This document shows, piece by piece, positions 19,289 to 54,859 of a DNA stretch of 64,000 nucleotides. The translations under genes and the position numbers were made by a program. The stretch's first letter is position 1. Every line of letters begins with the position of its first letter. Location: assembly GCA_948144175.1 (NCBI GenBank), contig CANXME010002051.1:248001-312000 (forward strand), given 5' to 3'. The DNA is from Closterium sp. NIES-65 (taxonomy: Eukaryota; Streptophyta; Zygnematophyceae; Desmidiales; Closteriaceae). The notes under the pieces were generated by a model. The model saw only the letters and a program-made list of their open reading frames with translations, did no database searches and was not told the DNA's origin.

Positions 19289-19336
19289 GTGTGACTGAGT
19301 CAGGGTAATGGTGCGGCGTGCTCTGTCCCGGGTGAT

Positions 19337-23318: not shown

Positions 23319-23909
23319 CTACTGCTGCTGGCGCGGACCACCACCGGAGCCACTCCTCTGCGTAGACCCGCGACCAGCTCCACCGCCACCTCCGCCGCCT
23401 CCGCCGCCTCCGCCACCACCGCCGCCTCCGCTACCACCGCCTCCTCCGCTCCCTCCGCCACTGCCGCCGCCTCTGCCCCCACTGCTGCCACTGGTACCCC
23501 CACCTCCTCCACCACTCCCACCACCACTCCCGCTCCCTCCGCCGCCTCCACCACCACCTCCACCGCCCCCGCCAGCTCCTCCAGCGCCCTTACCCCCCTT
23601 GCCCTTGCCTGAGCGGCGCTTCCCCGAAGGGGCAGACGCAGCACCGACCGAGTCAAAACCAACGAGGTCAGCCGCAGCAGCAGAAGCAACAGAGGGCAAG
23701 AGGGGGGAGGGAGAACACCCCTCGAAGACAGGGGTGCGGGGGTCACCACGAGAGGCTCCTACAGCGACTATGCTCTTCTCCGCCGCTAGGACGGCCTTCT
23801 CAAGGAGGTCAATGGTGAGAGTGGTGGGGCACACTGCTAGGAAGTGGTCCCTGACTACCTTAAGGGAGTCAGGGAGGCGAGTGACTAAGAAGTAGAGGGT
23901 GATGTACAT
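23319..23909 (-). CDS. Copia J gag middle part with Gly-rich tract
   Basis: 196 codons: MYITLYFLVTRLPDSLKVVR and LLEKAVLAAEKSIVAVGASR (gag core), then a basic patch (GKRRSGKGKGGKG) and ~90 residues that are mostly Gly with some Ser, ending before the LREWY and zinc-binding segment at about 23160-23290. A Gly-rich RNA-binding-like tail is unusual for copia gag but is shared by L. Confidence 0.75.
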   Translation of the reverse strand: MYITLYFLVTRLPDSLKVVRDHFLAVCPTTLTIDLLEKAVLAAEKSIVAVGASRGDPRTPVFEGCSPSPLLPSVASAAAADLVGFDSVGAASAPSGKRRSGKGKGGKGAGGAGGGGGGGGGGGGGSGSGGGSGGGGGGTSGSSGGRGGGSGGGSGGGGGSGGGGGGGGGGGGGGGGGAGRGSTQRSGSGGGPRQQQ

Positions 23910-24057
23910 GGGGGGGGGGGGGGGGGGTTCTTGGCACAGAAGTCAGCAGGAAGTGCAGCGCGGTAGCGAGCGTCACTAGTGCAGAGGTGCGTAATGAGGT
24001 CAGCTACTGTGGGAAAGGCAGCAAGGTCAGGGAAGAGGTACGGCAGCATGAGACGGC

Positions 24058-24390
24058 TCAGTGCAGCAGTGGCAGGGGAGGAGTAGCGTGCAACGACAGC
24101 GTCGTACAAGGTCTGAGCACTCTTGTACTGACTAAAGTGCGCACGCTCGGAGGTAAGGAGGTGGCGACGCACAGCAAGACGTGCAGCAGCGTCGCGCGTG
24201 GCCCACTGGGAGCGAACAGTGGCGTCAGCATCAGCAGCAGGGGCAGGGGAAGCGCCAAATGTGAGGTCAAAGAGAGAGAGGCTGTCTGCCCTATCGCACT
24301 GTAAGAACAGCTGCAGGTCATCTACCTAGACCTCGAAGTCAATGGCCCGACCCTCAGCGTCAAAAGCAAGGACAATAGGGGTAGCCATGA
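24058..24390 (-). pseudogene. Copia J gag N-terminal part
   Basis: Minus text begins near 24388 (MATPIVLAFDAEGRAID) and continues with the gag core seen in A and L (SQWATRDAAARLAVRRHLL). The start is chosen by homology with MATPSVL in A and L. Confidence 0.65.
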
Positions 24391-24429
24391 CCACAGTAGA
24401 ATAGCAGTGCAGACAGTAGGGTGAGGGCA

Positions 24430-25558
24430 GTGCAGTGAAAGAGGCGATGTGCTCACCGGACGGGGCAGCTCGGGCGGCTCGGCAGCAGGGCGGCTCGGCT
24501 GCTGGGTGGCTCGGCTGCCTGGCGGCTCAGCAGCTCGGCGGTAGTGCGGCTCGGCGGCTGGGCGGCTCGGGTGGAGTGCGGCTCGGCTGCCCGGCGGCTC
24601 GACTGTACGGCGGCTCGGCTGCTGGGCGGCTCGGCTGCAGGGCGGCTCGGCTGCTCGGCTGTTGGGCGGCTCGGCGGCCGGCTGTCCGGCTGCTCGGTTG
24701 CCCGGGCGGCTCGGCGGTGCTGCTGTAGGGCGGCGCGGCGGTCGGCTGCTCGGCTGGGTGGGTCGGGTCGGGCAGCTCGGGTGGTGGGCGGCGCTGCAGC
24801 AGGTGACGGGGCCGCAGATGAGAGCGGCGGAGCCACCAGTGAGAGCGGCGGGGCCACAGGTAAGAGCGGCGGGCCCGCAGAAGAGGGCGGCGGGGCCGCA
24901 GGTGAAATCGGCGGGGCCGCAGGTGAGAGCGGCGGGGCCGGCAGTTGATGGCGGCGTGGCCGCAGCAGAGGGCGGCGAGGCCGCAGCTGAGAGCGGCGGG
25001 GCCGCAGTAGTTGAGGGCGGCGGGGCCACAGGTGAGAGCAGCGGGGCCGCCGCAAAGGGCGGCGGGGCCAGCAGTTGAGGGCGGCGCGGCCGCAGCAGAG
25101 GGCGGCGGGGCCGCAGCAGAGGGCGGCGGGGCCGCAGTTGAGGGTGGCGGAGCCGCAGCAGAGGGCGGCGGGGCCGTAGCTGAGAGCGGCGGGGCCGCAG
25201 TAGTTGAGGGCGGCGTGGCCGCAGTTGAGAGCGGCGGGGCCGCAGTAGTTGAGGGCGGCGGGGCCGCAGTTGAGAGCGGCGGGCCGCAGTTGAGGGCGGC
25301 GGGGCCGTGTAGCGAGACGGCGGGGCAGTGAGAAGGGCGGCGACGGGCTGCTGCTTGGGCGGCGACGTGGCCGCTGGTGAAAGGGCGGCGTGACGCGGCC
25401 GTTAGGGCTGCGCGACGCGACCGTAAGGGCGGCGCGACGGGCCGCTAAGGGCGACACGACGGGCCGCTAAGGGGACGCGACGGGGCCGCTAAGAAGGGCA
25501 CGACCCTAGGTGCGCTTCGGGCAGGAAAAAAAAAAGGGATCGGTGGGCCCTAGGAACA
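24430..25558 (-). repeat. GC-rich repeat leader associated with LTR K
   Basis: Plus-strand arrays: cggctcggc units at 24470-24780 and ggcggcggggccgcag followed by cagaggg/ttgaggg units (period ~21-27 bp) at 24800-25320. A CCGGTGAGCAC (minus) splice-donor-like site lies at about 24450-24460, close to gag. The open frames are low-complexity. Confidence 0.75.
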
Positions 25559-25587
25559 GTTCCCACGAGGGAACCTGCTCGATACCA

Positions 25588-25718
25588 TGAGAAAATGTGA
25601 ACGAGGATGAATGAACTATGAATGAACTGAGTACAAATACTCACCCTAATTGGGTTGTACCCCTTATCGGCTACCCCACTATAGCCTACACAATAAGTAC
25701 AAGCTATATGTTCTGACA
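25588..25718 (-). repeat. Lone LTR of element K inside J
   Basis: 131 bp, TG...CA, more like the LTR of E (60164-60293) than of J. A primer site (TGGTATCGAGCAGG, 25574-25587) and the post-primer hairpin (25559-25574) lie on its left, so it acts as a 5' LTR on the minus strand. No second K LTR and no target duplication partner are visible. Confidence 0.8.
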
Positions 25719-26658
25719 AGAGGTGCTGCTCTTACCGGGCAGGCGAGAAGGACCAAGGCGGCTCGGGCGGCTCGGCTGCTCGGCGGCTCGGCAGCAACAG
25801 CAGCTCGGCAGCTTGGCGGCTCGGGCGGTTCGGGCGGCTCGGCTGCTCGGCGGCTCGGCAGCAACAGCAACTCGGCGGCTCGGCGACTCGGCGGCTCGGC
25901 GGCAACGGCGGCTCGGGCGACTGGGCGACAACGGCGGGTCGGGCGGCTCGGCTGCTGCAGGGACAGCGGCAGCTGCTGCTCAAGGGACGTTAGCGGCCTC
26001 TGCTGCAGGGACGGCAGCAGCCGCTCGTGCAGGGTCGGCGGTGGCGGCCGCTGCTGCAGGGACGGCGGCGGCCGCTGCTGAAGGGAGGGCTGGGCCGCAG
26101 GGTCGCGAGGGTAGGGCGACGGGGCCAGAAAGGGGCGGCGCCGGGGCCGGTAAGAGCGGCGCCGGGGTCGCGAGGGTGGCGCGAAGAGGCTGCGAGGGCG
26201 GCTCGAAGAGGCCGCTAGGGAGGCGCGAAGGGGCCGCGAAAGCGGCGCGAAGGGGCCACGAGGGCGATGCAAAGGGGCCGCGAGGGCGGCGCGAAGGTGG
26301 GGGCCGCGAGGGCGGTGCGAAGGGGCCGTAAGGGCGGCGTGACGGGGCCGCGAGGGCGGCGCGACGCGACAGGGCCGTACGGGCGGCGCGACGAGGCCGC
26401 TAGGGCAGCGCGACGGGGCCGCGAGGGCGGCGCGACGCGACGGGGCCGGGAAGGCGGCGCGACGGGGCCGTAAGGGCAGCGCGACGGGGCCGCAAGGGCG
26501 GCGCGACGCGACGGGGCCGCAAATGCGGCGCGACGGGGCCGTAAGGGCGGCGCGACGGGGCCACTAGGGGCCGTGAGAGGGGAGCGCAACTTGGGCAGAG
26601 GCTGAGGGCGCTCCGGGCAGGAAAAAAAAAAAAAAGGAAATGGTGGGCCCTAGGAACA
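25719..26658 (-). repeat. GC-rich repeat leader of copia J
   Basis: cggctcggcagcaacagcag units at 25755-25930 and ggcgcgacggggccgcgag units (period ~18-24 bp) at 26090-26580. A GGTAAGAG (minus) donor-like site is at about 25730-25740. No genes. Confidence 0.75.
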
Positions 26659-26688
26659 GTTCCCACGAGGGAACCTGCTCGATACCAT

Positions 26689-26814
26689 GTTGAAGTGAAC
26701 AAGAATGATTGCATTGAGCAGCATGAGGAGTACAAGTACCAAACCCTCAAGTATTGTACCCCATATAAGCTACCCCACTATAGCCTACACAGACTATAGT
26801 ATATGAGTTTGACA
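26689..26814 (-). repeat. 5' LTR of copia J
   Basis: 126 bp; primer site TGGTATCGAGCAGG immediately inside (26675-26688); target duplication ttcaa outside (26815-26819). Confidence 0.9.
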
Positions 26815-29107: not shown

Positions 29108-29403
29108 TGTTAGAATGGACTAAGCTACTAGCGGAAGCTTTAGTGGTCTTAGAACTTCCTCCTAAAGCCTAGGAACCTTAGGAGCCCACTTGGGCATGAA
29201 CCATGCTAAAACCAAAGTGGTTTCCAAGAAGTGAAGTTCCAACTAGAAAGAACCCTAACCTATAGGGTTTGGGAGGTGGTCCACTCTATAGAGTGTACAC
29301 CACAAGTTCTCCCAACCCAACCAGTGTATTCTACACTACTATAGTGTAGATGTATCACTACATATGTTTATTGGAGCAACCCGAATTAACCTTAATTCCA
29401 ACA
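29108..29403 (-). repeat. 3' LTR of copia N
   Basis: 296 bp, TGTTAG...CCAACA, matched by 34583-34878. A C-run on the plus strand (29404-29410) is the PPT in element sense. Confidence 0.9.
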
Positions 29404-29410
29404 CCCCCCC

Positions 29411-31951
29411 TTGCTCCAATAAACATTGAATTTCACCCATAAATAAAAACACAACCCCTCCAGCGAATGAAGCCTTGGCCTTCGCAGCCATCACTCGCAT
29501 GCCGATGCGCTCCAGGTTCTTATGCAGCTGCAAGCTTGAAAGAGCTTTGGTGAGCATGTCGGCATCCTGGAGGTGGGAGCGTACTGAGTGCACCTCGACC
29601 TCCTGCTGGCGCACCGCATCCCATACAAAGTGCCATGCCACCTTAATGTGCTTGGTGCGCTGATGGAGAATGGGATTGTGGGCAAGGGAGACAGCAGCCT
29701 CATTATCACAGAGCAATGGAATAGCCCCCCCATCCCCCACATGCATCTCTTCCAACAAACTCCTCAACCAAATGGCCTCCTTGGCCCCCTCCGATTGAGC
29801 TTTGTACTCAGCTTCAGAAACGCTTGCTGCAATGCTGTCTTGCTTTTTGTTATACCAGCTGATTGCTCCTCCTCCCAGCTTAAAGTTGTAGGCAGAGCGA
29901 CTCTTGCCATCAGTCTCACCACCCCAATCCGAGTATGTGTACCCAACAACCTGCTCACCACCTTGGCGCTCATACCTGATGACACGATCAGCTGTGTCGA
30001 CCAAGTACCTGAGTGCTCTCAGTGCAGCGCGCATGTGAATGCATCTTGGTGCCACGCGGGACTGTGCAAGGGTGTTGACAGTGAAAGATATGTCAAGACG
30101 GGTGGTCACAGCAGCATACATCAAGCTGCCAATGAGACTCTGGTACACATTGACATCAGCTGCAACACCTTCCTCAGTCAACCTAGTACCTTTCCTGATC
30201 TTAGAGAGATAATTGGGTGACATTGGAGTATGCACCCTATGGGTCTCCTTCAGCAGATCACCAAACCTTCCCTGGAGACCACGGACATACTTCTCCTTAC
30301 CAATCTCCAACCACCCATCCTTGACCGACCTGCGAACCTCCACACCAAGGTACGTCGATACCTCACCTAGATCCTTCATCTGGTACCTCTGAGCAAGCAC
30401 CTCCTTGACCTGACGGATCAGCTCCAAGCGTGGAGACACAAGCAAGAGGTCATCCACATACACCAATACATACACTAGCTCTTCATCCACAAACCTGATG
30501 TACAGAGCCTCATCACATGCAGTGTGGTCAAACCCTGCTGCAATCAGGGTGGTACCAATCTCCTCATTCCAAGCACGAGGCGCTTGCTTGAGTCCATAGA
30601 GACCTTTGCGCAAGTGATACACCCTACCTATACCATCATCAAATCTCTCAGGTTGCCTCACATACACCTCCTCTTGAATGACTGCATTGAGGTAAGCATG
30701 ATCAACATCCTCCTGTTGTTCATGCCACCCTTTTACCGTGGCTTCTCCAAGAAGCACCCGACCTGAGGTGAGCTTGCCCACAGGGGCAAATACCTTATCA
30801 TGGTCCTTCTCAGGCTCTTGAGTGTACCCCTTAGCAACAAGGCGAACCTTGTGCTGTAACACCTTATCCTCCATGTCAGTTTTCCTGTAGAAAACGTACC
30901 TGACCCCAATGGCCTTCTTATCTAGAGGTAAGTCGACCGGCTCTGGATCCCATACACCCATAGTGCGCATTGCATTTACCTTCTTCTCAGCGCCTGCCTT
31001 CCACGTAGGGCCCTCAGGGCCACTCAGAGCCTCAGCAAGTGTGCGTGGGACATCACCGGTGCTCACACCTGCCAATGCAACACCTTCCACCTCCCTAGCC
31101 AAACACAGCATTCCCTCAACCACACCAGCATCCCCCCCTACCTCCTCACCACCTGTACCAGACTGGATACCAGACACCTGCAAACCCATAACCGGTGGTG
31201 GGGAGGTAGTCGCCGGTGACGTAGGGGCACCCGTAGAGAGAGGGACAGAGCGCTGACCAGAGGAGGAGGAAGGGGAAGTAGCCTGTGTAGCGGATCTCTG
31301 CTGAATGACCGAGGGGCCACTTAGCTGCTGCTGCACCGACACAATCAGCGGTGCTGGTGGCAGTGATGAAGGTGGCATCTCAACGTCGTCAGCCGTTGCT
31401 GAGGGTGGCGAGAGTGGAAGAGGGAGGAGTTGGGAAATCGCAGCTGCATCCTGCAGAAGCTCCCCAAATCCCTTTGCCTTGTCCCAGTTCTTCCACATCA
31501 CATTCTCAAGAAAATCAACATCCCGAGCAATGCGAATGCGCATGAGAGAAGGGTCCAGCATGCGCCAACCCTTGCTCTCCATGTCCACCCCAACACAGAC
31601 ACACATGACAGCCCGTGCATCAAGCTTGCCACCCTTCTCATGCCCATGCAGCATGACACTCCTCATGCAACAACAAATCCGAGCCATGCCCACATGCAGC
31701 TTCTGGCCGGACCACACCTCCATTGGTATGATGGAGGCAGGCAAAGCACTGTGGGTGACCCTGTTCTTAACCCACACGACCCACATCAATGCTTTGCCCC
31801 ACAAGAGAGCAGGGAGACCACTGTCGACCAACAATGTATGAATCCCCTCTGCCATCGTCCTGTGCCACCTCTCCACGACCCCATTCTGCTGCGGTGTATC
31901 TGCGACACTCAATTGGGTTTTGATGCCAAACTCCGCTTTCCATGCTTTCAC
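29411..31951 (-). CDS. Copia N integrase C-terminus, RT and RNase H
   Basis: About 850 codons. It begins within the integrase core (DTPQQNGVVERWHRT, the DDE glutamate) and the copia integrase tail, then a Ser/Pro-rich linker. RT: NAMRTMGVWDPEPVDLPLDK, VRLVAKGYTQEPEKDHDKVF, VLVYVDDLLLVS with the catalytic YVDD. RNase H: YNKKQDSIAASVSEAEYKAQ, LLCDNEAAVSLAHNP, HQRTKHIKVAWHF. Text beyond the RNase H near 29411 runs into LTR sequence. Confidence 0.9.
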
Positions 31952-31960
31952 AGCGTCCCC

Positions 31961-32599
31961 CTAGAACTCGCCACCCCTGTCGAAGCGAACAGCCTTCAGC
32001 TTCCGCCCACACTCCAACTCCACGTCCTTATGCCACTGGCGAAGGACTTTTGCGACTTTGGCCGATTCCTTGTTGGGGAGTGGGAACGACCAAACTCGTC
32101 TGGTGAAGTCGTCAATGAGACTGGGGACATACACCGCTCCTCCCAGTGACGGTGTGCGCACTGGCCCCCACAAATCCATGTGGACCTCATCCAAAGGCCC
32201 AAGTGCCCGAGACGCCTCGTGAGGAAACGGCTTCCGAGCCGACTTTCCCAATAAGCAAGGCTCATATGGGGAGCAATCAGTGCTCCCCCCCCCCCCGATC
32301 TCCAAGCCCAGTATACTGTTCCCCCGAGCCATCTGTTGCAATGTTGTGGGGGCGATGAGCAAGGGTAAATGGGAAAAATGAGGAGGAGGACCGAGCTGCA
32401 AGAGCACTGCCTTGTGTGCCCCGAGCAAGAGGAAGAGACATCCGCACCAATCCATGGTCCCTGCCCCTCTCCTTTTCTCCAATCGCCAACACCCTCTCCC
32501 CCCGTTTAAGAACACATTTCTTCCCCTTGAATGTGACAATGACATCTCAAGAGGTGAGGTGTGGGACTGACAGCAGACGCGTGTGCATCTCAGGCACAA
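31961..32599 (-). CDS. Copia N integrase N-terminal part
   Basis: 212 codons. The tail has DEVHMDLWGPVRTPSLGGAV, IDDFTRRVWSFPLPNKES and KAVRFDRGGEF, giving the first two integrase acidic positions. Upstream is the zinc-domain region (SPYEPCLLGKSARKPFPHE). Confidence 0.8.
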   Translation of the reverse strand: MCLRCTRVCCQSHTSPLEMSLSHSRGRNVFLNGGRGCWRLEKRRGAGTMDWCGCLFLLLGAHKAVLLQLGPPPHFSHLPLLIAPTTLQQMARGNSILGLEIGGGGSTDCSPYEPCLLGKSARKPFPHEASRALGPLDEVHMDLWGPVRTPSLGGAVYVPSLIDDFTRRVWSFPLPNKESAKVAKVLRQWHKDVELECGRKLKAVRFDRGGEF

Positions 32600-33674
32600 G
32601 GTGGACCTTTTGAATCCTCATCAGCTGACCTCCAGCACCAACCAATGGCACCTCACCCATGCCAATAGCTTTCACCACCCGTCCATCTCCCAATCTAACT
32701 CCCCAAACCTCTGGTGGCTGAAGCTTACTTTTGAACTCCGATGCATAAGGAGTAAAGTTGTGGCTGGCCCCACTGTCAATCCACCACCCCTCTCGCAACT
32801 GCTCCTCTCCCACTGCTGCAACTGCCTCTCCAACCACTGCCTCTGCCTTATCATCCTGCTCCTCCTCATCCGCCACCTGTGTCTTGCAGTTGGATCCACG
32901 ACCCCCCCGCTTTAAGAATGTCGGAATGCCTCCCTTAGGTCGATGAGGACATCGCTGCCATGCATGTCCCTCATCCCAACAGCCATGACACAACCCCCGA
33001 GGAGCCATGCCCTTGGACCCCCAGGGGAAATCAAGCACTCCCGCTTTGCCTTTTCCTTGACCCCTTCTGCCCGAGTTGGTGCCACTGCTGCTACCGCTGC
33101 CTCCATGCTTTCCGCCCTTGTCCCAATTTCCCCTGCCGCTGCTGCCCACTTTCGTACCCGCTCCAAAAGTGGATACACCATCCGATCTTGGTTCGACACC
33201 AATCCGCATCTCCTCGCTCCTCAAGGAGGTAAGCAGCTGATCCTTAGTAAGCGATGGTGATTGGTTGTTCAGCACTACCTTCAGCATCTCAAAGTGAGGA
33301 GGTAGTCCTTTGCGTACCCTCATTATCCACTCTTCAACCTCCTCCTTCCCTCCTGCAGCCAAGTACTTGGACCTCAAGTCCTCGGCACGCGCCCAGTATG
33401 CAGCCACTCCCTCCCCTTCCTTCATCTTCAAGGAAGAGAGTTCCTCAGAGAGTCCCATCCAGTTACACAATCTACGCTGAAGATAGAACTCCTTCACTCG
33501 TGCGTATGCCGCTGCTGTGCCTGCAGGAACTCGGGTGACCGCTCTTGCTCCGCCATCAACAGGTGCGTTTCCCAACTCGGTCTTGCCGCCGAACTCCCGT
33601 ACCAAGCGAATCAACTCATCTGGCACCAAGGCATTGCAGAATTGGGCAAATGCCTTCTGATTTCTCCTCTCCAC
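32547..33674 (-). CDS. Copia N gag and protease
   Basis: 375 codons. The gag core (FYLQRRLCNWMGLSEELSSL, KGLPPHFEMLKVVLNNQSP) is followed by a Gly/Ser-rich basic stretch, knuckle CHGCWDEGHAWQRC (residues ~240-253), then protease WWIDSGASHNFTPYASEF and the usual LLSVPHLTS end. A typical single copia gag-PR arrangement. Confidence 0.9.
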   Translation of the reverse strand: MERRNQKAFAQFCNALVPDELIRLVREFGGKTELGNAPVDGGARAVTRVPAGTAAAYARVKEFYLQRRLCNWMGLSEELSSLKMKEGEGVAAYWARAEDLRSKYLAAGGKEEVEEWIMRVRKGLPPHFEMLKVVLNNQSPSLTKDQLLTSLRSEEMRIGVEPRSDGVSTFGAGTKVGSSGRGNWDKGGKHGGSGSSSGTNSGRRGQGKGKAGVLDFPWGSKGMAPRGLCHGCWDEGHAWQRCPHRPKGGIPTFLKRGGRGSNCKTQVADEEEQDDKAEAVVGEAVAAVGEEQLREGWWIDSGASHNFTPYASEFKSKLQPPEVWGVRLGDGRVVKAIGMGEVPLVGAGGQLMRIQKVHLVPEMHTRLLSVPHLTS

Positions 33675-34159
33675 TTTATCCGTGCGTCACCCGATACAGG
33701 CCGCTCCTCCGAACCATCAATGTACCCCCATAGATCGTGTGCCTCTGCCCATTGCTCGAATCGGAAGCTCCAAGTCCAATAGTCGCTCCCGTCGTACTTT
33801 GGCGCTCTCTCCAGCTTCCCTTTGCCTGAGTCATGATCCATTTGCGGCAAGAGCACTGAAGATTGACATTGAGGTGGTGGTGGAGGCAACGGCGGTGACG
33901 GTGAAGATGATGCAGGCAGATTCACACCCTCTTGGTTATTAGAGCGTAACTCCATGCTCAAACGTCCGAATGATGAGCTGTTTCGCTCAGATGAATCCTT
34001 GCTCCAAGACCGTTCCGATGATGTGTCGCGCTCCTGGATCCCGTGCCCGAGCTGGCTGCTTAAACTCGTCGAAGTTGGCCGATTTCCCGTCAACGAAGAC
34101 TCGACCGTTTCTCCCGATTTTTGGCTTGTTGGATGCGCCCTAGCCTCCTCTGTCGGCAT
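33611..34159 (-). CDS. Copia N gag N-terminal part
   Basis: 182 codons. A Ser-rich start is followed by the copia gag N-terminal motif APKYDGSDYWTWSFRFEQW, cognate to copia I (FEGNDFYTWSFEFELL). The leader between 34160 and 34582 has no other gene. Confidence 0.75.
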   Translation of the reverse strand: MPTEEARAHPTSQKSGETVESSLTGNRPTSTSLSSQLGHGIQERDTSSERSWSKDSSERNSSSFGRLSMELRSNNQEGVNLPASSSPSPPLPPPPPQCQSSVLLPQMDHDSGKGKLERAPKYDGSDYWTWSFRFEQWAEAHDLWGYIDGSEERPVSGDARIKWRGEIRRHLPNSAMPWCQMS

Positions 34160-34582
34160 CTGCCCTCCAATCTTTTTTCTGCGATTTAAATCTTCACCGA
34201 TTCGCGATTTTCCAATCCGTCCACCGACTGTATTTCGCGAATTACGTCTGATCTGCTCGTCGGTTGGTAACGACCCCGAGGCAATGTTGTAGATTGTGTC
34301 AAGGCCTTTCCAGCGTAATGCTGCACGTGTTGATCAGCCAAAGTTGACTGAGCGCCTCCGTGAATGGATATCGCTATTCTCGTCCTCCCGAACGGATCCA
34401 CACGATTTCCAGCAGTTTTCTTCTCTCCTCCTCCCCTCCCACGTCCAGAGTCCGACACGGTGCAATTTCGGCAGCCCTTCGGGAGGGATGGAAGCTATTT
34501 AGCTTCCACCAAGGTGTTATGATCAAATTTCTTGAGTAGCTCCTATTCCAACAGATTGCTAGGCTTCCTAGCTCTGATACCA

Positions 34583-34878
34583 TGTTACAATAGACTAAGC
34601 TACTAGCGGAAGCTTTAGTAGTCTTAGAACTTCCTCTTAAAGCCTAGGAACTTTAGGAGCCCACTTGGGCATGAACCATGCTAGAACCAAAGTGGTTTCC
34701 AAGAAGTGAAGTTCCAACAAGAGAGAACCCTAACCTATAGGGTTTGGGAGGTGGTCCACTCTATAGAGTATACACCACAAGTTCTCCCAACCCAACCAAT
34801 GTATTCTACACTACTATAGTGTAGATATATCACTATATATATTTATTGGAGCAACCCAAATTAACCTTAATTCCAACA
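34583..34878 (-). repeat. 5' LTR of copia N
   Basis: 296 bp; primer site left, gaagg target duplication right (34879-34883). Confidence 0.9.
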
Positions 34879-35401
34879 GAAGGGACTCGTGGTAGTACTG
34901 ATTCTTCTCCTGGATGGTTCCTTCCGACGGAAACGGTAAGCTCCCGTCGTAGTACATCCAGATCCGCGCGGTTGTTGCGAGGAGCTCAAACTCAAAGCTC
35001 CACGTGTAGAAATCATTGCCTTCAAATTGAGTTGAAGTTTTCAGCTTTGAGGTCAAAGCGAACTTCGTTCGCATGGTTGTGATTGCCTCTGCTTGTGCGC
35101 GTTGTTGACTGTCGTGCGCAGGAGCTGAAGCCCGATGGTTGTCACAGGTAAATGATCTCTCCGAGTTGACGCGACGGTCTTCTCCCTGGAGAGGCAGTCC
35201 AGCAACTCCTCTTGCGTGGCTTGAGCCGTCAATTCTCATGTCTTGATGGCTCTCAAGGGCGTTTCTGCGAGCGACGGACTACTTAACAAGGGCGGCGCTT
35301 ACGGAAGTCACTGCTGATGACGCATTAGCAGCCGTTGCTGGTGGTGGGCCCGAAGAGTCTGCAGTATATTTCCCCTCAGGAGCCATAGTGATGCAGACTT
35401 G
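34879..35401 (-). mobile_element. Copia I, gag N-terminus and leader
   Basis: Minus-strand coding text from a start codon at 35384-35386 (MAPEGKYTADSSGPPPATAA) through TSKLKTSTQFEGNDFYTWSF and ARIWMYYDGSLPFPSEGT, the typical copia gag N-terminus. Bounded by insertions N (left) and O (right); O sits just upstream of the gag start. Confidence 0.75.
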
Positions 35402-35539
35402 TGTCAGAATCCCAACCACTAGACCATTGGGATAAAAGGGCTTGTTAAGTAGCGGGTCAGTGCGCCCATAACCCCCCAGGCCAACGTGCCTGTAACCCTT
35501 CCCTAGGATCAATCGGGGATCACCAGTGGACCTCTGACA
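35402..35539 (-). repeat. 3' LTR of element O
   Basis: 138 bp, TGTCAGAGG...TTCTGACA in element sense; carries its own copy of the A-box-like motif near its 3' end (plus 35416-35426). Confidence 0.9.
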
Positions 35540-35575
35540 CCCCCCCGCACTGGGATGCCCGAAGTGCATACACCG

Positions 35576-35585
35576 GGATTCGAAC
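35576..35585 (-). promoter_or_regulatory. Pol III B-box-like motif in element O
   Basis: Minus strand GTTCGAATCC fits the tRNA B-box consensus (GWTCRANNC) exactly and sits in a T-arm-like context, TCGAGTTCGAATCCCGG. It is 37 nt downstream of the A box, a normal tRNA spacing. Confidence 0.7.
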
Positions 35586-35608
35586 TCGAGACCTTCGCTC
35601 TGATACCA

Positions 35609-35747
35609 TGTCAGAATCCCAACCACTAGACCATTGGGATAAAAGGGCTTGTTTCAGTAGCGGGTCAGTGCGCCCATAACCCCCCAGGCCAACGTGTCTG
35701 TAACCCTTCCCTAGGATCAATCGGGGATCACCAGTGGACCTCTGACA
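35609..35747 (-). repeat. 5' LTR of element O
   Basis: 139 bp, matching 35402-35539. Its 3' end in element sense contains the A box and abuts the primer site. Confidence 0.9.
35623..35633 (-). promoter_or_regulatory. Pol III A-box-like motif in element O LTR
   Basis: Minus strand TGGTCTAGTGG fits TRGYNNARNNG exactly. The wider text TGGTCTAGTGGTTGGGATTC matches the D-arm region of tRNA-Glu genes as I remember them, at 19 of 20 positions in the animal form. Confidence 0.7.
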
Positions 35748-35846
35748 ACTTGTAACAGGTATTCAATGAGTAATTTTGTAAAGAGTTTTTTTTTAGGAAG
35801 AACAAGAACTTGGCAGATCTTATCATCCACTCTGGCTCTCATACCA
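35748..35846 (-). other. Copia I leader and primer site
   Basis: Short non-coding leader of element I. At 35834-35846 the minus strand reads TGGTATGAGAGCC, a tRNA-iMet-type primer site, touching the 5' LTR that starts at 35847. Confidence 0.65.
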
Positions 35847-40180: not shown

Positions 40181-40312
40181 TGAGAAGAGTTGAACGAGAA
40201 TGAAATGACTATGAATGAAGTGAGTACATATAGGAAACCCTAATCGGGTTATACCCCCTATGGGATACCCCACTATAGCCTACACAAATAAGTAAGCTAT
40301 AATGTTCTGACA
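40181..40312 (-). repeat. 3' LTR of copia L
   Basis: 132 bp; the PPT hairpin (CCCCCACTTTGCCTATGGGG, minus) lies at about 40314-40334. Confidence 0.9.
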
Positions 40313-40512
40313 CACCCCCATAGGCAAAGTGGGGGAGAACAAGGGGTCACAAGACCAGTCAAGCAAAGCAAGGCAAAGCTCAGGGTGGATCACAAAGTCA
40401 CCACAAATTCCGAGCACAGGTTCAAAGGCCAAAAGGCCAGTTCACATGCAAGAACACATAAATATAGATATAGAAGAGGCTAAGCAAGCAAGAGCAAGAG
40501 TATATATAAGTG

Positions 40513-41514
40513 TCAGTACAAGCAAGGTCTAGAAGTGAGCAAGTAAGGCAAGACAGGCACAAGACCCAACTGAGTGCAGAAGCGCTGATGATCACAAGGC
40601 GCAAGTGCCTTGGTGAAGACATCAGCAGTGTTGGCCTCAGAGGCCACGTATGCAAGCCGCAACAGTCCATGCTGGTGTAACTCACGAGCAAGAAAGTAGC
40701 GGAGAGCAATGTGCTTTGTCCTGTGCTCCAGTCGCTGCTCTCGACACAAGGCCAGCATGGCCTTGTTGTCTACGTACAGGACTGGAGGAGAACGAGGCGG
40801 CTCTCCAAGGTCAGTCAGCAGGTAGGTGAGCCAGCGAAGCTCCTGGGCAGCCATAGCCCCGGCGTAGATCTCAGCCTCACAACTGGAGCCGAGAACAGAA
40901 GACGAGCGGGTAGCCCGCCACGAAACAGAGCCGGAACCGAGGCTGAAGGTGTAACCCTGTGACGACCGCAGCGTAGCCTGGTCATCAGCCCAAGAAGCGT
41001 CCGCGTGCCGAGTGAGGACCACTGGACTCCGCCCTCCAAGCACTAGCCCCATGCCCGACGTACTGCACAAGTAGCGCAACACCCTCTTCGCTGCAGCCAT
41101 GTGCTCTGGTCGGTGTCTCCCAGGAGCAACATAGCGTGCGAGAATGCTAAGAGGGTATGCAAGGTCAGGTCGAGTGCAGGTCATCAGGTACATGAGGCAA
41201 CCAACAAGCTCTCGATATGGGCCACTCGACTCTACGAACTCATCCGAAGGCAGAGCTGAGAGCGAGTGGCGAGTAGGCAGAGGAGTGGCCTGAGGCGAGG
41301 AGTACGTGAAGCCGAAGCGCTGAAGGACCTGCTGCACCAAATGTGACTGAGTCAAGGTAATGGTACGGCGTGCTCTATCCCGGGTGATCTGCAAGCCAAG
41401 GTAGCTGCGCAGTTCACCCAGGTCAGTGCACGTGTGTCTCTTCTGCAGCTCGGACTTCACGTAGGCGAGTCCAGCAGTGTCAGCTGTGGCAAAGACCAAG
41501 TCGTTGACGTACAC
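40513..41514 (-). CDS. Copia L RT C-terminus and RNase H
   Basis: 333 codons: VNDLVFATADTAGLAYVKSE and RSYLGLQITRDRARRTITLT (RT), VGCLMYLMTCTRPDLAYPLS (connection), then RNase H with HADASWADDQATLRSS, SSCEAEIYAGAMAAQELRWL, LYVDNKAMLALCREQRLEHR and EANTADVFTKALAPCDHQRF. Confidence 0.9.
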   Translation of the reverse strand: MYVNDLVFATADTAGLAYVKSELQKRHTCTDLGELRSYLGLQITRDRARRTITLTQSHLVQQVLQRFGFTYSSPQATPLPTRHSLSALPSDEFVESSGPYRELVGCLMYLMTCTRPDLAYPLSILARYVAPGRHRPEHMAAAKRVLRYLCSTSGMGLVLGGRSPVVLTRHADASWADDQATLRSSQGYTFSLGSGSVSWRATRSSSVLGSSCEAEIYAGAMAAQELRWLTYLLTDLGEPPRSPPVLYVDNKAMLALCREQRLEHRTKHIALRYFLARELHQHGLLRLAYVASEANTADVFTKALAPCDHQRFCTQLGLVPVLPYLLTSRPCLY

Positions 41515-41673
41515 GAGGATGTAGAACGGCGGCAGAGAAGTGTCGGTGCGCAGAAACAGCGACGGGTCGGCAGTAGAAGGAGCAAACCCAAGAGTTGCAA
41601 GCGTAGTCCTAAGTGTGTCGTGCCACTCACGGGGCGCCTGGCAGAGACCGTAGACTGGACGCCGGAGACTCCA

Positions 41674-42042
41674 CTAGGTACCAGGAGGGAAAGACCCAGT
41701 GAAGCCAGGTGGGCGGCGCAGCCAGATCTCCTCGTGCAGGCTGCCCTGCAAGAACGCAGTGCTGAAGTCGAGGGAGTGCAGCTCGTAGTCACGGTGAGCA
41801 GCAACGTGCAGCAGTACCCAAAGAGTGGTCATCTTTGGGGTGGGGGAGAAGGTCTGAAAGTAGTCAACCCCCTGCCACTGACTGAAGCCACGAGCCACGT
41901 AACGCGCCTTGAAGACAGGCGGAGAACCCGGCGGCCGCTTCACCCTGAAGATCCACATGCCACTGACGATGTTCGCCCCAGGAGGGGGGACAGCGTCAAC
42001 GTAGGTGCCTGTGGACTTCCAGGAAGCCATCTCTGCATCCAT
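41674..42042 (-). CDS. Copia L reverse transcriptase N-terminal part
   Basis: 122 codons: DAEMASWKSTGTYVDAVPPP, NIVSGMWIFRVKRPPGSPPV, FKARYVARGFSQWQGVDYFQ, LDFSTAFLQGSLHEEIWLRR, the palm/fingers start of copia RT. Confidence 0.9.
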   Translation of the reverse strand: MDAEMASWKSTGTYVDAVPPPGANIVSGMWIFRVKRPPGSPPVFKARYVARGFSQWQGVDYFQTFSPTPKMTTLWVLLHVAAHRDYELHSLDFSTAFLQGSLHEEIWLRRPPGFTGSFPPGT

Positions 42043-42054
42043 AGCTGCCTGCCA

Positions 42055-43005
42055 CTAAGAGGAGTAGGGACGCTCTATTGCCTCCGTGTAAGAGCGCGGA
42101 GTCGGGATGTCAAGTGCATCCGGGTCTCCCTCAGGGGTAAGCAGTACGGACAAGAGATGCGGTGAAGCGGCTGCCAGGCACTGGAACTCCTCCTGCCTGT
42201 CCTCGAGGACGTCCGTGCCAAGGGCACACTCACCCCCGACGGACGGAGGACAGACAGACTCAGACTCTGCGACAAGACTAGTAGCGTAGTCTAAGCGACA
42301 GCGAGCAGCAAAGTGGACGAGCTCAGTAACGAGGGCAGACGCAGCAGAAGACTCGAAAGAAGGGTCAGTGGCGATAGTAGCAAGGAAACGCGTGACAGTA
42401 GGACTGGCAGCACGAAGAGAGTCCGACTCCGGGTCGGCAAGAGCACGAAGAGAGGACTCAGAAGGAGAAGGTAAAGGGGCACGCAGAGGAGCAGTAGACG
42501 GACGCAGTGACATCCGGTGCGTGCCAGGGAAAGGAGGAGGACGCTGACGCGAACTGCGACCACTAGCGCGTGCAGGACGAACAGGTGACGCAGGACGAGA
42601 CGCAGGCTCACGACGCTCAGTAAGACCTCCAGTAGGACCAGTGTAGGGAGAAGGAGCAGGTAAGGGGGAAGGAGGCTGTAGCTGTGACTGGGACGGGACA
42701 GGCTGTAGACGCTCTAAGAGAGGAGGAGAGCAAGGAGAAGGTGGAAGACCAAGAACCTGCTGCAGGAGTGGAACGAAGTACGGTCGAGGGCGCGCAACGA
42801 CACCAGACATAGCAGGGACAGCACCAGTACCCCCCGCAGGAGCACCCGCTCCAGTAGCACCTCCAGCAGCACCCCCAGCAGCTCCAGAACCCCCAGCAGC
42901 ACCAGGAGCACCGCCAACAGGACCGCCAGTGGTAGTCTCAGCGCCAACACCCTCAGCAGCACCAGCTCCATTCGAACCCAAAGGCCCAGCAGCTCCAGTA
43001 CTCAC
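42055..43005 (-). CDS. Copia L Pro/Ser-rich linker before RT
   Basis: 316 codons, mainly Gly/Ala then Pro/Ser/Arg-rich low complexity (integrase-RT spacer), with a conserved segment FAARCRLDYATSLVAESESV and LDIPTPRSYTEAIERPYSS leading into RT. Confidence 0.8.
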   Translation of the reverse strand: MSTGAAGPLGSNGAGAAEGVGAETTTGGPVGGAPGAAGGSGAAGGAAGGATGAGAPAGGTGAVPAMSGVVARPRPYFVPLLQQVLGLPPSPCSPPLLERLQPVPSQSQLQPPSPLPAPSPYTGPTGGLTERREPASRPASPVRPARASGRSSRQRPPPFPGTHRMSLRPSTAPLRAPLPSPSESSLRALADPESDSLRAASPTVTRFLATIATDPSFESSAASALVTELVHFAARCRLDYATSLVAESESVCPPSVGGECALGTDVLEDRQEEFQCLAAASPHLLSVLLTPEGDPDALDIPTPRSYTEAIERPYSS

Positions 43006-43110
43006 AGTACGAGCACCTCCGGGACCCGCGACAGTAGCACCCTCAGCAGTCGAAGAACCTCCAGCACCAGCAGGACGCCTCCAGCGCCGGGCAAACCACT
43101 CACGTAGCTC

Positions 43111-46107
43111 CTATGGGGAGAGTGGATCTCGGCGAGACGAAGCACCCGGCGAACCTCTAGGCGAAGAAACTTCAGGCTCAGCACCCCCATGCAAAGCACC
43201 TCCAGGCTCTGCACCCCTAGGCTCAGCACCCCCAGACTCATTACCCCCAGGCACAACACCCCCAGGCTCAGCACCCCTAGGCTCAGCACCCCCAGGCTCC
43301 GCACCCCCAGGCTCCGCACCCCCAGGCTCAGCACCCCCAGGCGCAGCACCTCTAGGCTCAGCACCCCCAGTCTCAGCACCCCTAGGCTCAGCACCCGCAG
43401 CAGCACCAGAGTCACCAGTGACCTCGACAGGCTCGACCGCGTCTAGCTGGGACACACCTGAAGGGGCAGGACCCTGAGGGGGAAGGGGGTCTACCGGGGG
43501 GGGACCTGGTACCAAGAAGAGCGGGGGTGGGGGGAGGGACGGAGTGCGGTAGGGGAAGAGGCGGTAGTAGGGTACCGACTCATCGAACGTGACGTCCTGG
43601 GAGGACAGAACACGGCGAGAGGTGGGGTGGTAGAACTGCCACCCAGGGGCGTCGGTGGGGAACCCCATGAAGACACAGGGAGCAGCTCGAGGGGACAGCT
43701 TGTCCGCAGACAAGTTGTGGACAAACGCCCGAGATCCCCAGACCCGGAACGCCAACGCATCGCCAACCTTCCCCGTGTACAGCAGGGTTGGGGAGGTCTC
43801 CGGCCGGGAGACCCTGGGGTGAAGGTTGATCTGGTGCGCCGCGTACCTCACCGCAAACGGCCACAGAAAATGGGGGGCAGCCGCATGCATCATGGACGTA
43901 CGAGCGACGTCCATGACCATGCCAATGCAACGCTCAGCGATCCCATTTTGCTGTGGAGAGTCCGGAAGCGTGAAGGTCAAACGAATGCCCCGTGCGCGAT
44001 AGTAGGCTGTCAGAAGGCCAGAGGAGAACTCTCCGCCTCTGTCCGAGTGCAGTCGCAGAACAGGAAAGTCCGAGCCAAAGCTCTGCCTGAGCTGGAGACG
44101 AGCTGCGCGGATCCAGTCGATCAGCACCTCAGTGACATCACCCTTGCTGCGCAAGGGGAAGACTGTGGTGTAACGCGAGTAGTCGTCAACAACAAGCAGG
44201 AAGTAGCGCTCGTGACCCTGTCCACGGACGCGGGCTGGGCCCCACACGTCCATGTGAAGCGTCTGCAACGGGGCCTCTGTCGGAGGAAACTGGGAGGAGT
44301 GAGGGGCAGCATGCTGGCGCCCCTCAACACAGGGGATACAGGTAGGGCCAGGGCCCTGAGGAAGGGGAGGGAGGGACCGGGGGAGACCAGACACAAGACG
44401 ACGGGAGGCCATACCTCTGAGCCGAAGCAGAGAGGGGTGACCTAGGCGGTGGTGCCAGAGGAGAGTCTCGTGAGACAGGAGACGACACGAACAAGGGGCA
44501 GACTCAGGACCAGACCTGGACGCTGCAGCAAACACCTGACCAGACGCAGGGACCCTACCAGACTCAGTAACTGGGGGAGACGCAGTGGTCAGTGTGTACA
44601 GGCTCGACCCTGGCTGACGCGTAAACGTAGCCAGGTGTCGACCTGTGCTAGCCTCTGTGCAGTGCGTCACCCGCTGACGAGCAGGGGTGAACTGGTGGAC
44701 TCCCGCATCCTGTAGGTCAGCACCACTCACCAAGTTCATAGAGAACGAGGGGAGGTAGAGACCAGACAGGGTGCCAGAGGGAGCCGCCAGACACGGGAGG
44801 ACATTGGAGAAGCGATACAGGACAGGACCCCCGGAGGGGTCAGCCAGGGAAACCGCAACCGGCCGACTAAGCGGCGTGAGTGTGGTGCGATCCCGAAGGA
44901 AGGAGCGAGACGCCCCAGAGTCAAGGGTGAAGGTGTGGGAGGCCGAAGCCGACGTAGTACCTGAGAGCGCAGACTCACCAGTACCCGAGGACGCAGACAC
45001 ACTAGCACCTAGAGCAGCAGCGTCGCAAGCACCTAGGGCAGCAGCCTCACCAGTACCTAGAGCAGCAGTCTCAATGCCCGGGTCGGGCGGAAAACACCGG
45101 TAACAGTCACCCTCATCACTAATGGTCACAGCATACATGGCAGCAAGGATAGCATCAAAGTCAAGATCAAAGATAGCTACACCAACCCTAGACAGCTCTC
45201 CCCAGCGGGGGATCTCCGTGGCCTCCGGAAACTGCAGACGCCAAGCGTCCGTCAGGCGGCCAAAACAGCGCTGGGTGGAGTGGGCACCCCCACACTGCTC
45301 ACCCGCGCGGTCGCCGTTGCGAAGGACATAGGTGCAGGGACCAAGTCCCCCACCACGCTGACGCTGCGTGTACCACTCACGGAGCTGCTGAGGGGTGGGG
45401 ACGTCGCGAGAACGCTGCTGCTGCTGTTGCTGGCGCTGACCACCCCCAGTGCCGCTCTGCTGCGACGTGCCACTCCGACCACCTCCACCACCTCCACCTC
45501 CACCTCCCCCACCTCCGCCACCGCCGCCACCCCCGCCAGTACCGCCGCCGCCGACGCCGCCTCCGCCTCCACTGCTACCACTAGTACCCCCACCCCCACC
45601 ACCTCCTCCACGGCCACCCCCACTCCCTCCGCCGCCTCCACCTCCACCTCCACCGCCCCCGCTAACCCCACCTGCTTCCTTGCCCCCCTTGCCCTTGCCA
45701 GGGCGACGTCTCCCGCTAGGGGCAGACGCCGCACCGACCGACTCAAGACCAACGAGGTCGGCCGCAGCGGCAGAGGTGACAGAGGGCAAGAGAGGGGAAG
45801 GAGAACACCCCTCAAAGATGGGGGCGCGGGGGTCACCTCGAGAGGCACCTACAGCGACGATGCTCTTTTCCGCCGCTAGGAGGGCCTTCTCTAGGCTGTC
45901 GACTGTGAGAGTGGTGGGACAGACCGCAAGGAAGTGGTCCCGGACTACACGAAGGGAGTCAGGGAGGCGGGTGACTAGAAAGTAGAGAGTGATGTACATG
46001 GGGGGGGGGGTTCTTGGCGCAGAAGTCAGCAGGAAGCGCAGCGCGGTAGCGGGTGTCACTAGTGCGGAGGTGCGTAATGAGATCAGTGACTGTGGGAAAG
46101 GCGGCAA
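43111..46107 (-). CDS. Copia L gag (mid/C), protease and integrase
   Basis: 998 codons. Gag core MYITLYFLVTRLPDSLRVVR, Gly-rich tract (residues ~105-215), PTPQQLREWYTQRQRGG, then a variant zinc motif GPCTYVLRNGDRAGEQCGGA and HSTQRCF (C-X13-C-X3-H-X4-C). Protease TFTLDSGASRSFLRDRTTLT. Integrase: LLWHHRLGHPSLLRL with CIPCVEG, MDVWGPARVRGQGHERYFLL, LRLHSDRGGEFSSGL, DSPQQNGIAERCIGM. C-terminal GGAEP/GGAVP array. The longest open segment in the window. Confidence 0.9.
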   Translation of the reverse strand: MPPFPQSLISLRTSALVTPATALRFLLTSAPRTPPPMYITLYFLVTRLPDSLRVVRDHFLAVCPTTLTVDSLEKALLAAEKSIVAVGASRGDPRAPIFEGCSPSPLLPSVTSAAAADLVGLESVGAASAPSGRRRPGKGKGGKEAGGVSGGGGGGGGGGGGSGGGRGGGGGGGGTSGSSGGGGGVGGGGTGGGGGGGGGGGGGGGGGGGGRSGTSQQSGTGGGQRQQQQQQRSRDVPTPQQLREWYTQRQRGGGLGPCTYVLRNGDRAGEQCGGAHSTQRCFGRLTDAWRLQFPEATEIPRWGELSRVGVAIFDLDFDAILAAMYAVTISDEGDCYRCFPPDPGIETAALGTGEAAALGACDAAALGASVSASSGTGESALSGTTSASASHTFTLDSGASRSFLRDRTTLTPLSRPVAVSLADPSGGPVLYRFSNVLPCLAAPSGTLSGLYLPSFSMNLVSGADLQDAGVHQFTPARQRVTHCTEASTGRHLATFTRQPGSSLYTLTTASPPVTESGRVPASGQVFAAASRSGPESAPCSCRLLSHETLLWHHRLGHPSLLRLRGMASRRLVSGLPRSLPPLPQGPGPTCIPCVEGRQHAAPHSSQFPPTEAPLQTLHMDVWGPARVRGQGHERYFLLVVDDYSRYTTVFPLRSKGDVTEVLIDWIRAARLQLRQSFGSDFPVLRLHSDRGGEFSSGLLTAYYRARGIRLTFTLPDSPQQNGIAERCIGMVMDVARTSMMHAAAPHFLWPFAVRYAAHQINLHPRVSRPETSPTLLYTGKVGDALAFRVWGSRAFVHNLSADKLSPRAAPCVFMGFPTDAPGWQFYHPTSRRVLSSQDVTFDESVPYYRLFPYRTPSLPPPPLFLVPGPPPVDPLPPQGPAPSGVSQLDAVEPVEVTGDSGAAAGAEPRGAETGGAEPRGAAPGGAEPGGAEPGGAEPGGAEPRGAEPGGVVPGGNESGGAEPRGAEPGGALHGGAEPEVSSPRGSPGASSRRDPLSP
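43165..43400 (-). repeat. Pentapeptide (GGAEP) coding minisatellite in copia L
   Basis: About fifteen 15-bp units gcacccccaggctca (plus) encoding GGAEP with drift (RGAEP, GGVVP, GGNES). Lies between integrase and the RT linker, as in J and E. Confidence 0.9.
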
Positions 46108-46471
46108 GGTCAGGGAAGAGGAAGGGTAGCATGAGGCGGCTCAGTGCAGCAGTGGCAGGGGAAGAGTAGCGCGCAACTACAGCGTCGTACAAGGTCTGAG
46201 CACTCTTGTACTGACTAAAGTGCGCGCGCTCAGCGGTAGGCAGGTGGCGACGCACAGCAAGACGTGCAGCTGCATCGCGGGTGGCCCACTGAGAGCGAAC
46301 AGTGGGGTCAGCATCAGCAGCAGGGGCAGGAGAGGCGCCAGAGGTGAGGTCAAAGAGAGAAAGGCCGTCCGCCCTATGGCACTGTAAAAACAGCAGCAGG
46401 TCGTCGACCGAGACCTCAACGTCAATGGCTCGACCCTCAGCGTCAAAAGTGAGGACACTAGGGGTAGCCAT
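45959..46471 (-). CDS. Copia L gag N-terminal part
   Basis: 170 codons starting MATPSVLTFDAEGRAIDVEV; UBN2-like gag core SQWATRDAAARLAVRRHLPT, YSSPATAALSRLMLPFLFPD, TVTDLITHLRTSDTRYRAAL. The start agrees with siblings A and J. Confidence 0.85.
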   Translation of the reverse strand: MATPSVLTFDAEGRAIDVEVSVDDLLLFLQCHRADGLSLFDLTSGASPAPAADADPTVRSQWATRDAAARLAVRRHLPTAERAHFSQYKSAQTLYDAVVARYSSPATAALSRLMLPFLFPDLAAFPTVTDLITHLRTSDTRYRAALPADFCAKNPPPHVHHSLLSSHPPP

Positions 46472-46529
46472 GACGACGAGAGACTAGCAGTGCAAGCATT
46501 AGGGGAAGGGCACGCAGTGACAGTGGGGC

Positions 46530-47310
46530 TGTGCTCACCGGACAGGGCAGGTCGAGCGGCTCGGCAGACGGGCGGATCGGCTGGTGGGCGGCACGGCGGC
46601 TCGGCGGCTCGGCTGCTTGGCGGCGCGGCGGCTCGGTTGCTCGGCGGCTCGGCTGCTGGGCGGCTCGGCTGCTGGGCGGCTCGGCTGCTCTCCTCGTCGG
46701 CGCGGCTGTCGGCTGCTCGGGTGGCGCGGCAGGAGAGGAGAGCGGCAGGGCCGCAGCAGACGGGCGGCGGGGCCCCAGGTGTAGGGCGGCGGGGCCGCAG
46801 CAGAGTCGGGCGGCGAGGCCGCGAAGCGCAGGGCCGCGAAGCGCAGGGCGGCGGGGCCGTTGAAGCGGGGCGGCGAGGCCGCGAAGCGTAGGGCAGCGGG
46901 GCCGCGAAGTGCAGGGCGGCGGGGCCGCGAAGCGTAGGGCGGCGGGGCCGCGAAGTATAGGGCGGCGGGGCCGCGAAGCGTAGGGCGGCGGGGCCGCTAA
47001 AACAGGGCGGCGGGGCCGCGAAGTGCAGGGCGGCGGGGCCGCGAAGTGCAGGGCGGCGGGGCCGCGAAGCGTAGGGCGGCGGGGCCGCTAAAGCAGGGCG
47101 GCGGGGCCGCGATCGTAGGGCGGCGGGGCCGCGAAATCAAGGCGGCGGGGCCGCGAAAGCAGGGGCGGCGGGGCCGCGACAGTAGGGCGGCAGGGCCGCT
47201 AGGGGAGGGACTGCCGCTGGGGCGGCTGTTTGAGTGAATAGCCCGAGGCGCGACTCGCGATGAGCGCGCTTCGGGCAGAAAAAAAAAGGTTCGTAGTGGT
47301 GGGCCCTAGG
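46530..47310 (-). repeat. GC-rich tandem-repeat leader of copia L
   Basis: cggctcggc units (46560-46700), then ~24-bp units ggcggcggggccgcgaagtg with variable last bases (46780-47210). A CCGGTGAGC (minus) donor-like site lies at 46534-46543, near the gag end. Non-coding. Confidence 0.8.
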
Positions 47311-47314
47311 CGCA

Positions 47315-47330
47315 GTTCCCACAGGGGAAC
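47315..47330 (-). promoter_or_regulatory. Post-primer-site hairpin of copia L
   Basis: Minus strand GTTCCCCTGTGGGAAC: 6-bp perfect stem, 4-nt loop, directly after primer site TGGTATCGAGCAGG (47330-47343). Equivalents occur in J, K, E, A, B and C. Confidence 0.7.
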
Positions 47331-47343
47331 CTGCTCGATACCA

Positions 47344-47475
47344 TGAGAAGAGTTGAACGAGAATGAAATGACTATGAATGAAGTGAGTACATATAGGAAA
47401 CCCTAATCGGGTTGTACCCCCTATGGGATACCCCACTATAGCCTACACAAATAAGTAAGCTATAATGTTCTGACA
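47344..47475 (-). repeat. 5' LTR of copia L
   Basis: 132 bp, one difference from 40181-40312; cgtct follows. Confidence 0.9.
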
Positions 47476-47621
47476 CGTCTCTCAACTACAAATTGAAGGA
47501 CTCGGTCTTCGTTCAATTCAGGTCAGCTCAGTTGGCGATAGAACCAAATTTTTGTAGCTGAAAATCTTGTCATTCGAGCTTCACTTCAGTCAAATTGAGC
47601 TCTTGGTCTCAGAGTACCGCC
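47476..47621 (+). promoter_or_regulatory. 5' UTR/proximal promoter remnant of the host gene
   Basis: 146 bp between copia L and the ATG, AT-richer than the elements. No TATA box is convincing. The original distal promoter (39213-40180) is now 7.3 kb away because of L. Confidence 0.4.
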
Positions 47622-54835: not shown

Positions 54836-54859
54836 CACCCCCATAGCCAAAGTGGGGTG

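What the first reader, a model, noticed from the sequence alone, without database searches (positions are those of the whole stretch)
35402..35747. A 346-bp complete LTR element whose LTR/primer-site junction reads as a tRNA-like Pol III promoter
Seen: matched 138/139-bp LTRs, acttg target duplications, iMet-type primer site and purine run, with only 69 bp between the LTRs. Also seen: an exact A-box match (TGGTCTAGTGG) at the 3' end of the LTR, an exact B-box match (GTTCGAATCC) 37 nt downstream inside the element, and TCTGA-CATGGTA-TCAGA between them. That last piece is a 5-bp stem with a 7-nt loop, the geometry of an anticodon arm, and it straddles the LTR end and primer site. The D-arm-like text matches tRNA-Glu closely. 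Known: SMART/TRIM elements are non-coding LTR elements, and Cassandra TRIMs carry a 5S-type Pol III promoter in the LTR. Inference: O is a tRNA-flavoured analogue, a SINE/LTR hybrid that could be transcribed by Pol III and primed from inside its own tRNA-like fold. I do not know of a described family with this layout.
Basis: partly seen in the sequence, partly recalled or inferred. Interest (0 to 1): 0.75.

Follow-up and report, generated by a model that had tools for sequence, protein, structure and literature searches.

The report
Mini LTR element with tRNA-like promoter
This is a 346-base, protein-less jumping element whose sequence around the reverse-transcription primer site looks like part of a tRNA gene; elements of this general kind were described in 2024, but here the tRNA-like promoter is split across the end of the terminal repeat.

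Summary
Window 35402-35747 (sense = minus strand) is a complete 346-bp LTR element: LTRs of 139/138 bp, ACTTG duplications, a 12-nt iMet-type primer site, a G7 run, 69 bp inside. An A box ends the LTR; a B box lies 37 nt on, inside the element. Likeness to a human-type tRNA-Glu (letters recalled) scores 55; the best of 300 shuffled windows is 47. The strict A/B pair arises in 1 of 60,000 shuffles of the 208-nt unit. The only TTTT of each LTR lies 7 nt upstream of the A box, where a Cassandra-like Pol III scheme would need it.

The cloverleaf reading fails: nothing from ARAGORN or Rfam, ordinary folding. The 'anticodon arm' is the LTR tip facing the primer site.

The kind is known: Kojima 2024 named tRNA-promoter TRIMs Helenus (TRIMp3). 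Possibly new is the layout: A box in the LTR, primer site in the middle, B box outside the LTR. Pol III use and conservation are untested; the genome is not held and no second copy was found.

In passing: several Copia elements here carry antisense tRNA-iMet behind their primer sites.

The parts
35609..35747 (-). 5' LTR (139 bp), TGTCAGA...TCTGACA
   Evidence: LTR pair 97.8% alike, ends and coordinates
35402..35539 (-). 3' LTR (138 bp)
35748..35752 (.). target site duplication ACTTG, copy beside the 5' LTR
   Evidence: flanks
35397..35401 (.). target site duplication ACTTG, copy beside the 3' LTR
   Evidence: flanks
35597..35608 (-). primer binding site TGGTATCAGAGC, iMet type; the same PBS is given for Cassandra and for nine Jatropha Copia families
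   Evidence: passages
35623..35633 (-). A box TGGTCTAGTGG near the 3' end of the 5' LTR
35576..35585 (-). B box GTTCGAATCC in the internal part, outside the LTR
35416..35426 (-). A box copy in the 3' LTR, with no B box behind it
35641..35644 (-). TTTT in the 5' LTR, 7 nt upstream of the A box (putative R, with AACAAG just upstream)
   Evidence: role inferred
35434..35437 (-). TTTT in the 3' LTR, putative Pol III terminator
   Evidence: role inferred
35540..35546 (-). G7 run, putative polypurine tract, next to the 3' LTR
   Evidence: role inferred
35599..35615 (-). LTR tip/primer-site hairpin TCTGA-CATGGTA-TCAGA

Best explanation
It is a TRIM: a protein-less LTR element moved by the enzymes of a Copia-type element, carrying a tRNA-derived (SINE-head-like) internal Pol III promoter that lies across the LTR/primer-site border. 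Shown: the anatomy, the tRNA likeness, one TTTT per LTR just upstream of the A box. Inferred: Pol III starts in the 5' LTR near AACAAG, directed by the A box (U5) and the B box (internal part), reads about 215 nt and stops at the TTTT of the 3' LTR. This leaves about 10 nt repeated at both RNA ends for the first strand transfer, as in Cassandra. tRNA-iMet primes between the two boxes, the G7 run primes the second strand, and a Copia integrase inserts the copy with 5-bp duplications. Because the B box is outside the LTR, the 3' LTR and any solo LTR carry half a promoter only.
For: Complete LTR anatomy. tRNA likeness above all 300 shuffled windows for Glu (human type) and Gly-GCC, recalled letters. 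Strict A/B pair in 1 of 60,000 shuffles. Both halves like a tRNA on their own: LTR against human-type Glu 0 of 500 shuffles, post-PBS part against Gly-GCC 1 of 500. One TTTT per LTR, at the place the scheme needs, in 519 of 20,000 shuffles. Precedents: Helenus and Cassandra (PMC10886601). Copia-type coding elements lie all around.
Against: One copy only; no conservation test. No RNA data. tRNA letters recalled and the panel chosen after the match had been noticed; plant Glu-CTC (43) is within the window-wide shuffle range (best 52). The post-PBS half is weaker against Glu (16 and 14 of 500) and Asp (81 of 500), the LTR half against plant Glu, Gly and Asp (22, 10, 14 of 500). No tRNA fold. The A-B gap is 37 nt against 33 in the human-type tRNA-Glu used. 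The first TTTT would lie within a few nt of the proposed start and must be read through. T4 may be a weak terminator in plants (recalled).
Confidence: 0.5

Rival explanations
1. An ordinary Pol II-transcribed TRIM/SMART in which the tRNA-like stretch is a relic of a captured SINE or tRNA piece without promoter function now.
For: TRIMs and SMARTs without Pol III promoters are the common sort in plants (PMC3281118 and PMC4717578: the searched text has no occurrence of 'polymerase III'). No evidence of transcription here.
Against: Both boxes are intact in the younger-looking insertion (LTRs 97.8% alike), correctly ordered and spaced, with a well-placed TTTT.
Confidence: 0.35
2. The boxes are a coincidence picked out of 64 kb.
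Against: 0 of 300 shuffled windows reach 55 with three tRNAs (best 52); 0 of 20 with six tRNAs (best 48).
Confidence: 0.1
3. The B-box half is antisense sequence of the primer tRNA-iMet, as found behind primer sites of neighbouring Copia elements, and serves extended primer pairing as in Ty1.
For: 6 of 13 junctions show antisense tRNA-iMet; Ty1 pairs with the T and D hairpins of tRNA-iMet (PMC5454406, passages); the LTR holds GGGTTATGGGC, like the antisense anticodon arm (7 of 500 shuffles plant, 5 of 500 human).
Against: Behind this element's own primer site 797 of 1,000 shuffles score as well, 269 of 500.
Confidence: 0.05

Closest known systems
Helenus (TRIMp3; Kojima 2024, PMC10886601)
   Same: Short protein-less LTR element, PBS and PPT, 5-bp duplications in plants and fungi, tRNA-like A and B boxes, no convincing functional tRNA; the one plant family has LTR 120 and internal part 85 bp
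   Different: Helenus carries the tRNA-derived sequence in its LTRs; here the B box lies in the internal part and the primer site lies between the boxes. Box A differs at one base from TRGCY, box B has AGTTC for GGTTC
Cassandra (5S-type TRIM)
   Same: LTR element with a Pol III promoter and the same 12-nt primer site; scheme of start in one LTR and stop in the other
   Different: 5S boxes, absent here
SMART/TRIM (FRetro129, PMC3281118)
   Same: 292-bp class, TGT...ACA ends, 5-bp duplications, Copia partner proposed
   Different: No tRNA or Pol III feature told: 'tRNA' and 'polymerase III' do not occur in its text
tRNA-derived SINEs
   Same: A box and B box of tRNA type without a tRNA fold (general knowledge, and PMC10886601 introduction)
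   Different: SINEs have no LTRs, primer site or integrase-type 5-bp duplication

Membership tests
TRIM | Under 1000 bp, two LTRs, PBS and PPT, no coding | tested here: met
   346 bp; no ORF of 150 aa or more overlaps the element
TRIM | Target site duplication of 4-6 bp | tested here: met
   ACTTG both sides
Helenus | tRNA-derived sequence with A and B boxes in the LTRs | tested here: not met
   A box in the LTR, B box in the internal part
Helenus | Box A with TRGCY and YGG, box B with GGTTC ('most' families) | tested here: not met
   TGGTC and TGG; AGTTC (sequence; motif)
Helenus | Sequence relationship to a Helenus consensus | not testable with these tools
   Consensus letters are in a supplement and Repbase, not held
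TRIMp3 | Transcription by Pol III | not testable with these tools
   No RNA or ChIP data; motif evidence only
Cassandra | 5S-type box A and box C | tested here: not met
   No match with up to 1 mismatch inside 35402-35747
SMART (FRetro129) | Homology to FRetro129 | not testable with these tools
   No plant genome or FRetro129 letters held
tRNA gene | Cloverleaf recognised by ARAGORN or Rfam | tested here: not met

The most novel reading that the evidence does not exclude
A class of LTR elements whose two-part Pol III promoter is split by the primer site, A box in U5 and B box in the leader. Only the full LTR+internal unit can then be transcribed, solo and 3' LTRs are silent, and the LTR end is simply where tRNA-iMet primes inside a former SINE head: a direct SINE-to-LTR-element conversion.
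Probability: 0.25. Interest if true: 0.7.

Novelty: new variant of a known kind. Interest (0 to 1): 0.45.

Why it matters
It would extend tRNA-promoter TRIMs (only one plant species in the 2024 paper) to another layout, and would show how an LTR element can keep its promoter from reading out of its 3' or solo LTRs. It also makes a testable case for how a SINE-like transcript could become an LTR element by gaining a primer site.

Tried and rejected
Tried without result: the window's own genome is not held. Exact or gapped patterns of the junction found nothing in viral contigs or genome contigs, collections in which plant DNA is hardly to be expected. blastn found nothing in plasmids or phages. 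Searches for plant SINE strings gave 0 papers; a search for initiator tRNA strings listed 9 papers, none opened.

Rejected: a tRNA cloverleaf; antisense tRNA-iMet as the source of the B box; Cassandra membership. The anticodon-arm reading is unsupported. Errors of mine in the controls: the 17.4-kb junction was placed about 11 nt off and one base off; the junction of 18140-26814 was one base off; the 48.8-kb LTR has no recognisable primer site.

Absence from print: the split layout was not seen in parts 1-5 of 6 of PMC10886601 or its passages. The searches that bear on it were made, all in an open-access library; no supplement, Repbase entry or genome was seen.

Full report
What was checked. 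The element at 35402-35747 reads in sense on the minus strand: a 139-bp 5' LTR (35609-35747), a 69-bp internal part (35540-35608) and a 138-bp 3' LTR (35402-35539), with ACTTG on both sides. The LTRs are 97.8% alike and differ by two substitutions and one 1-nt indel, so the insertion is probably young. The primer site is TGGTATCAGAGC, and a G7 run abuts the 3' LTR.

Setting. The window is a nest of LTR retrotransposons. I gave Pfam ten of the 74 ORFs of 150 aa or more; all ten have retroelement domains, seven of Copia type and three of Gypsy type. Many LTR pairs are seen. The element sits about 90 nt behind the primer site (35835-35846) of an older Copia-like leader and about 15 nt before an ATG whose short frame is ended by a stop. 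The organism is unknown. The primer site is the one given for Cassandra and for nine Jatropha Copia families (passages), which suggests a plant; this is inference.

Is the tRNA likeness more than chance? Pattern test: of 60,000 dinucleotide shuffles of the 208-nt LTR+internal unit, 146 have the relaxed A/B pair, 4 the tighter and 1 the strict. Alignment test with recalled tRNA letters: the junction scores 55 for a human-type tRNA-Glu and 52 for plant Gly-GCC; the best scores in 300 shuffled windows are 47 and 49, and 52 over the three tRNAs tried. Plant Glu-CTC, at 43, lies within the shuffle range (best 52), although no shuffle of the junction alone reaches it (0 of 500). The halves apart: LTR against human-type Glu 0 of 500, but against plant Glu, Gly and Asp 22, 10 and 14 of 500; post-PBS part against Gly 1 of 500, against the two Glu 16 and 14 of 500, against Asp 81 of 500. 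The panel was small and chosen after the match was noticed, which softens the numbers. The likeness is in primary sequence only: ARAGORN and Rfam find no tRNA, and folding is ordinary (z -0.43; 58 of 200 shuffles as stable). This is what a SINE-type head looks like.

Mechanism. Each LTR holds one TTTT, 7 nt upstream of the A box, and the sense strand has no other. A single TTTT placed within 25 nt upstream of the A box arises in 519 of 20,000 shuffles. With a start near AACAAG, just before the first TTTT, and a stop at the second TTTT, Pol III would make an RNA of about 215 nt with about 10 nt repeated at both ends. That is the scheme told for Cassandra, with 18 bp (PMC10886601). The primer site and G7 run would then serve ordinary LTR reverse transcription by a Copia partner. 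All steps after the anatomy are inferred. Because the B box lies outside the LTR, a solo LTR or the 3' LTR would carry half a promoter only.

The anticodon arm. TCTGA/TCAGA pairs the LTR tip with the primer site. In 11 other junctions the same positions pair 4 of 5 in three cases (G-U counted). A further one (17.4 kb) was set one base off there; read it pairs 5 of 5 with one G-U. No tRNA explanation is needed.

Antisense primer tRNA as a rival. Copia elements of the window do carry antisense tRNA-iMet behind the primer site, so I asked whether the B box could be such a piece. Behind this element's primer site 797 of 1,000 shuffles score as well; the rival fails there. A weak antisense match around GGGTTATGGGC lies in the LTR (7 of 500 shuffles for plant, 5 of 500 for human iMet) and is unexplained.

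What is known. Kojima 2024 (PMC10886601; parts 1-5 of 6 read; passages) describes Helenus: TRIMs whose LTRs contain tRNA-derived A and B boxes, in fungi, animals and one plant species, Selaginella moellendorffii. He groups them with Cassandra and Ajax as TRIMp3. So the kind is known. In this element the tRNA-like stretch runs over the LTR end, through the primer site, into the internal part. It therefore fails a defining feature of Helenus as worded there, while it would work like one. Cassandra boxes are absent from the element. SMARTs (PMC3281118; parts 1-2 of 8 and passages) share the size class and a proposed Copia partner.

Side finding. Of 13 junctions examined, 6 show sequence colinear with antisense plant tRNA-iMet (recalled letters) behind the primer site, at 9 or fewer of 1,000 shuffles: 7461-13543, 54713-56133, 60.2 kb, 18140-26814, 25.6 kb and 40181-47476. 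Two are weak (30 and 51 of 1,000). Five show none: this element, 29108-34878, 35.8 kb, 17.4 kb (misplaced by me) and 48.8 kb (no primer site seen). In the best case the match runs over nearly the whole tRNA. In the window-wide scan with six tRNAs these antisense iMet matches score up to 70, above this element's 55. Several of these LTRs are related, so the cases are not independent. Ty1 is known to pair with the T and D hairpins of tRNA-iMet through short boxes (passages of PMC5454406); a near-complete antisense copy may instead mean that reverse transcription once copied the primer itself. That is inference.

Limits. One copy, no genome, no RNA data, recalled tRNA letters.

Noticed in passing
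behind the primer sites at 7585 (+), 60294 (+), 56009, 47343, 26687 and 25587 (-): Copia-type elements carry, directly behind an iMet-type primer site, sequence colinear with antisense tRNA-iMet (recalled letters), in the best case nearly the whole tRNA: 6 of 13 junctions at 9 or fewer of 1,000 shuffles. Captured primer copy or Ty1-like extended primer pairing.
   Followed up: partly
35616-35640 (-), and 35409-35433 (-): A perfect 7-bp inverted repeat ATCCCAA/TTGGGAT exactly flanks the A box in each LTR.
   Followed up: no
35672-35682 (-), and 35464-35474 (-): GGGTTATGGGC in each LTR, like the antisense anticodon arm of tRNA-iMet; weak (7 of 500 shuffles).
   Followed up: partly
54713-56133 (-): A 1.4-kb element with 124-bp LTRs 98.4% alike, probably a non-autonomous relative of the element at 7461-13543, with which it shares LTR and leader.
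   Followed up: no
11900-12600, 24500-25500, 26100-26600, 46700-47200, 60400-61400: Long G+C-rich GGGCGGC-type degenerate repeats inside several Copia-type elements.
   Followed up: no
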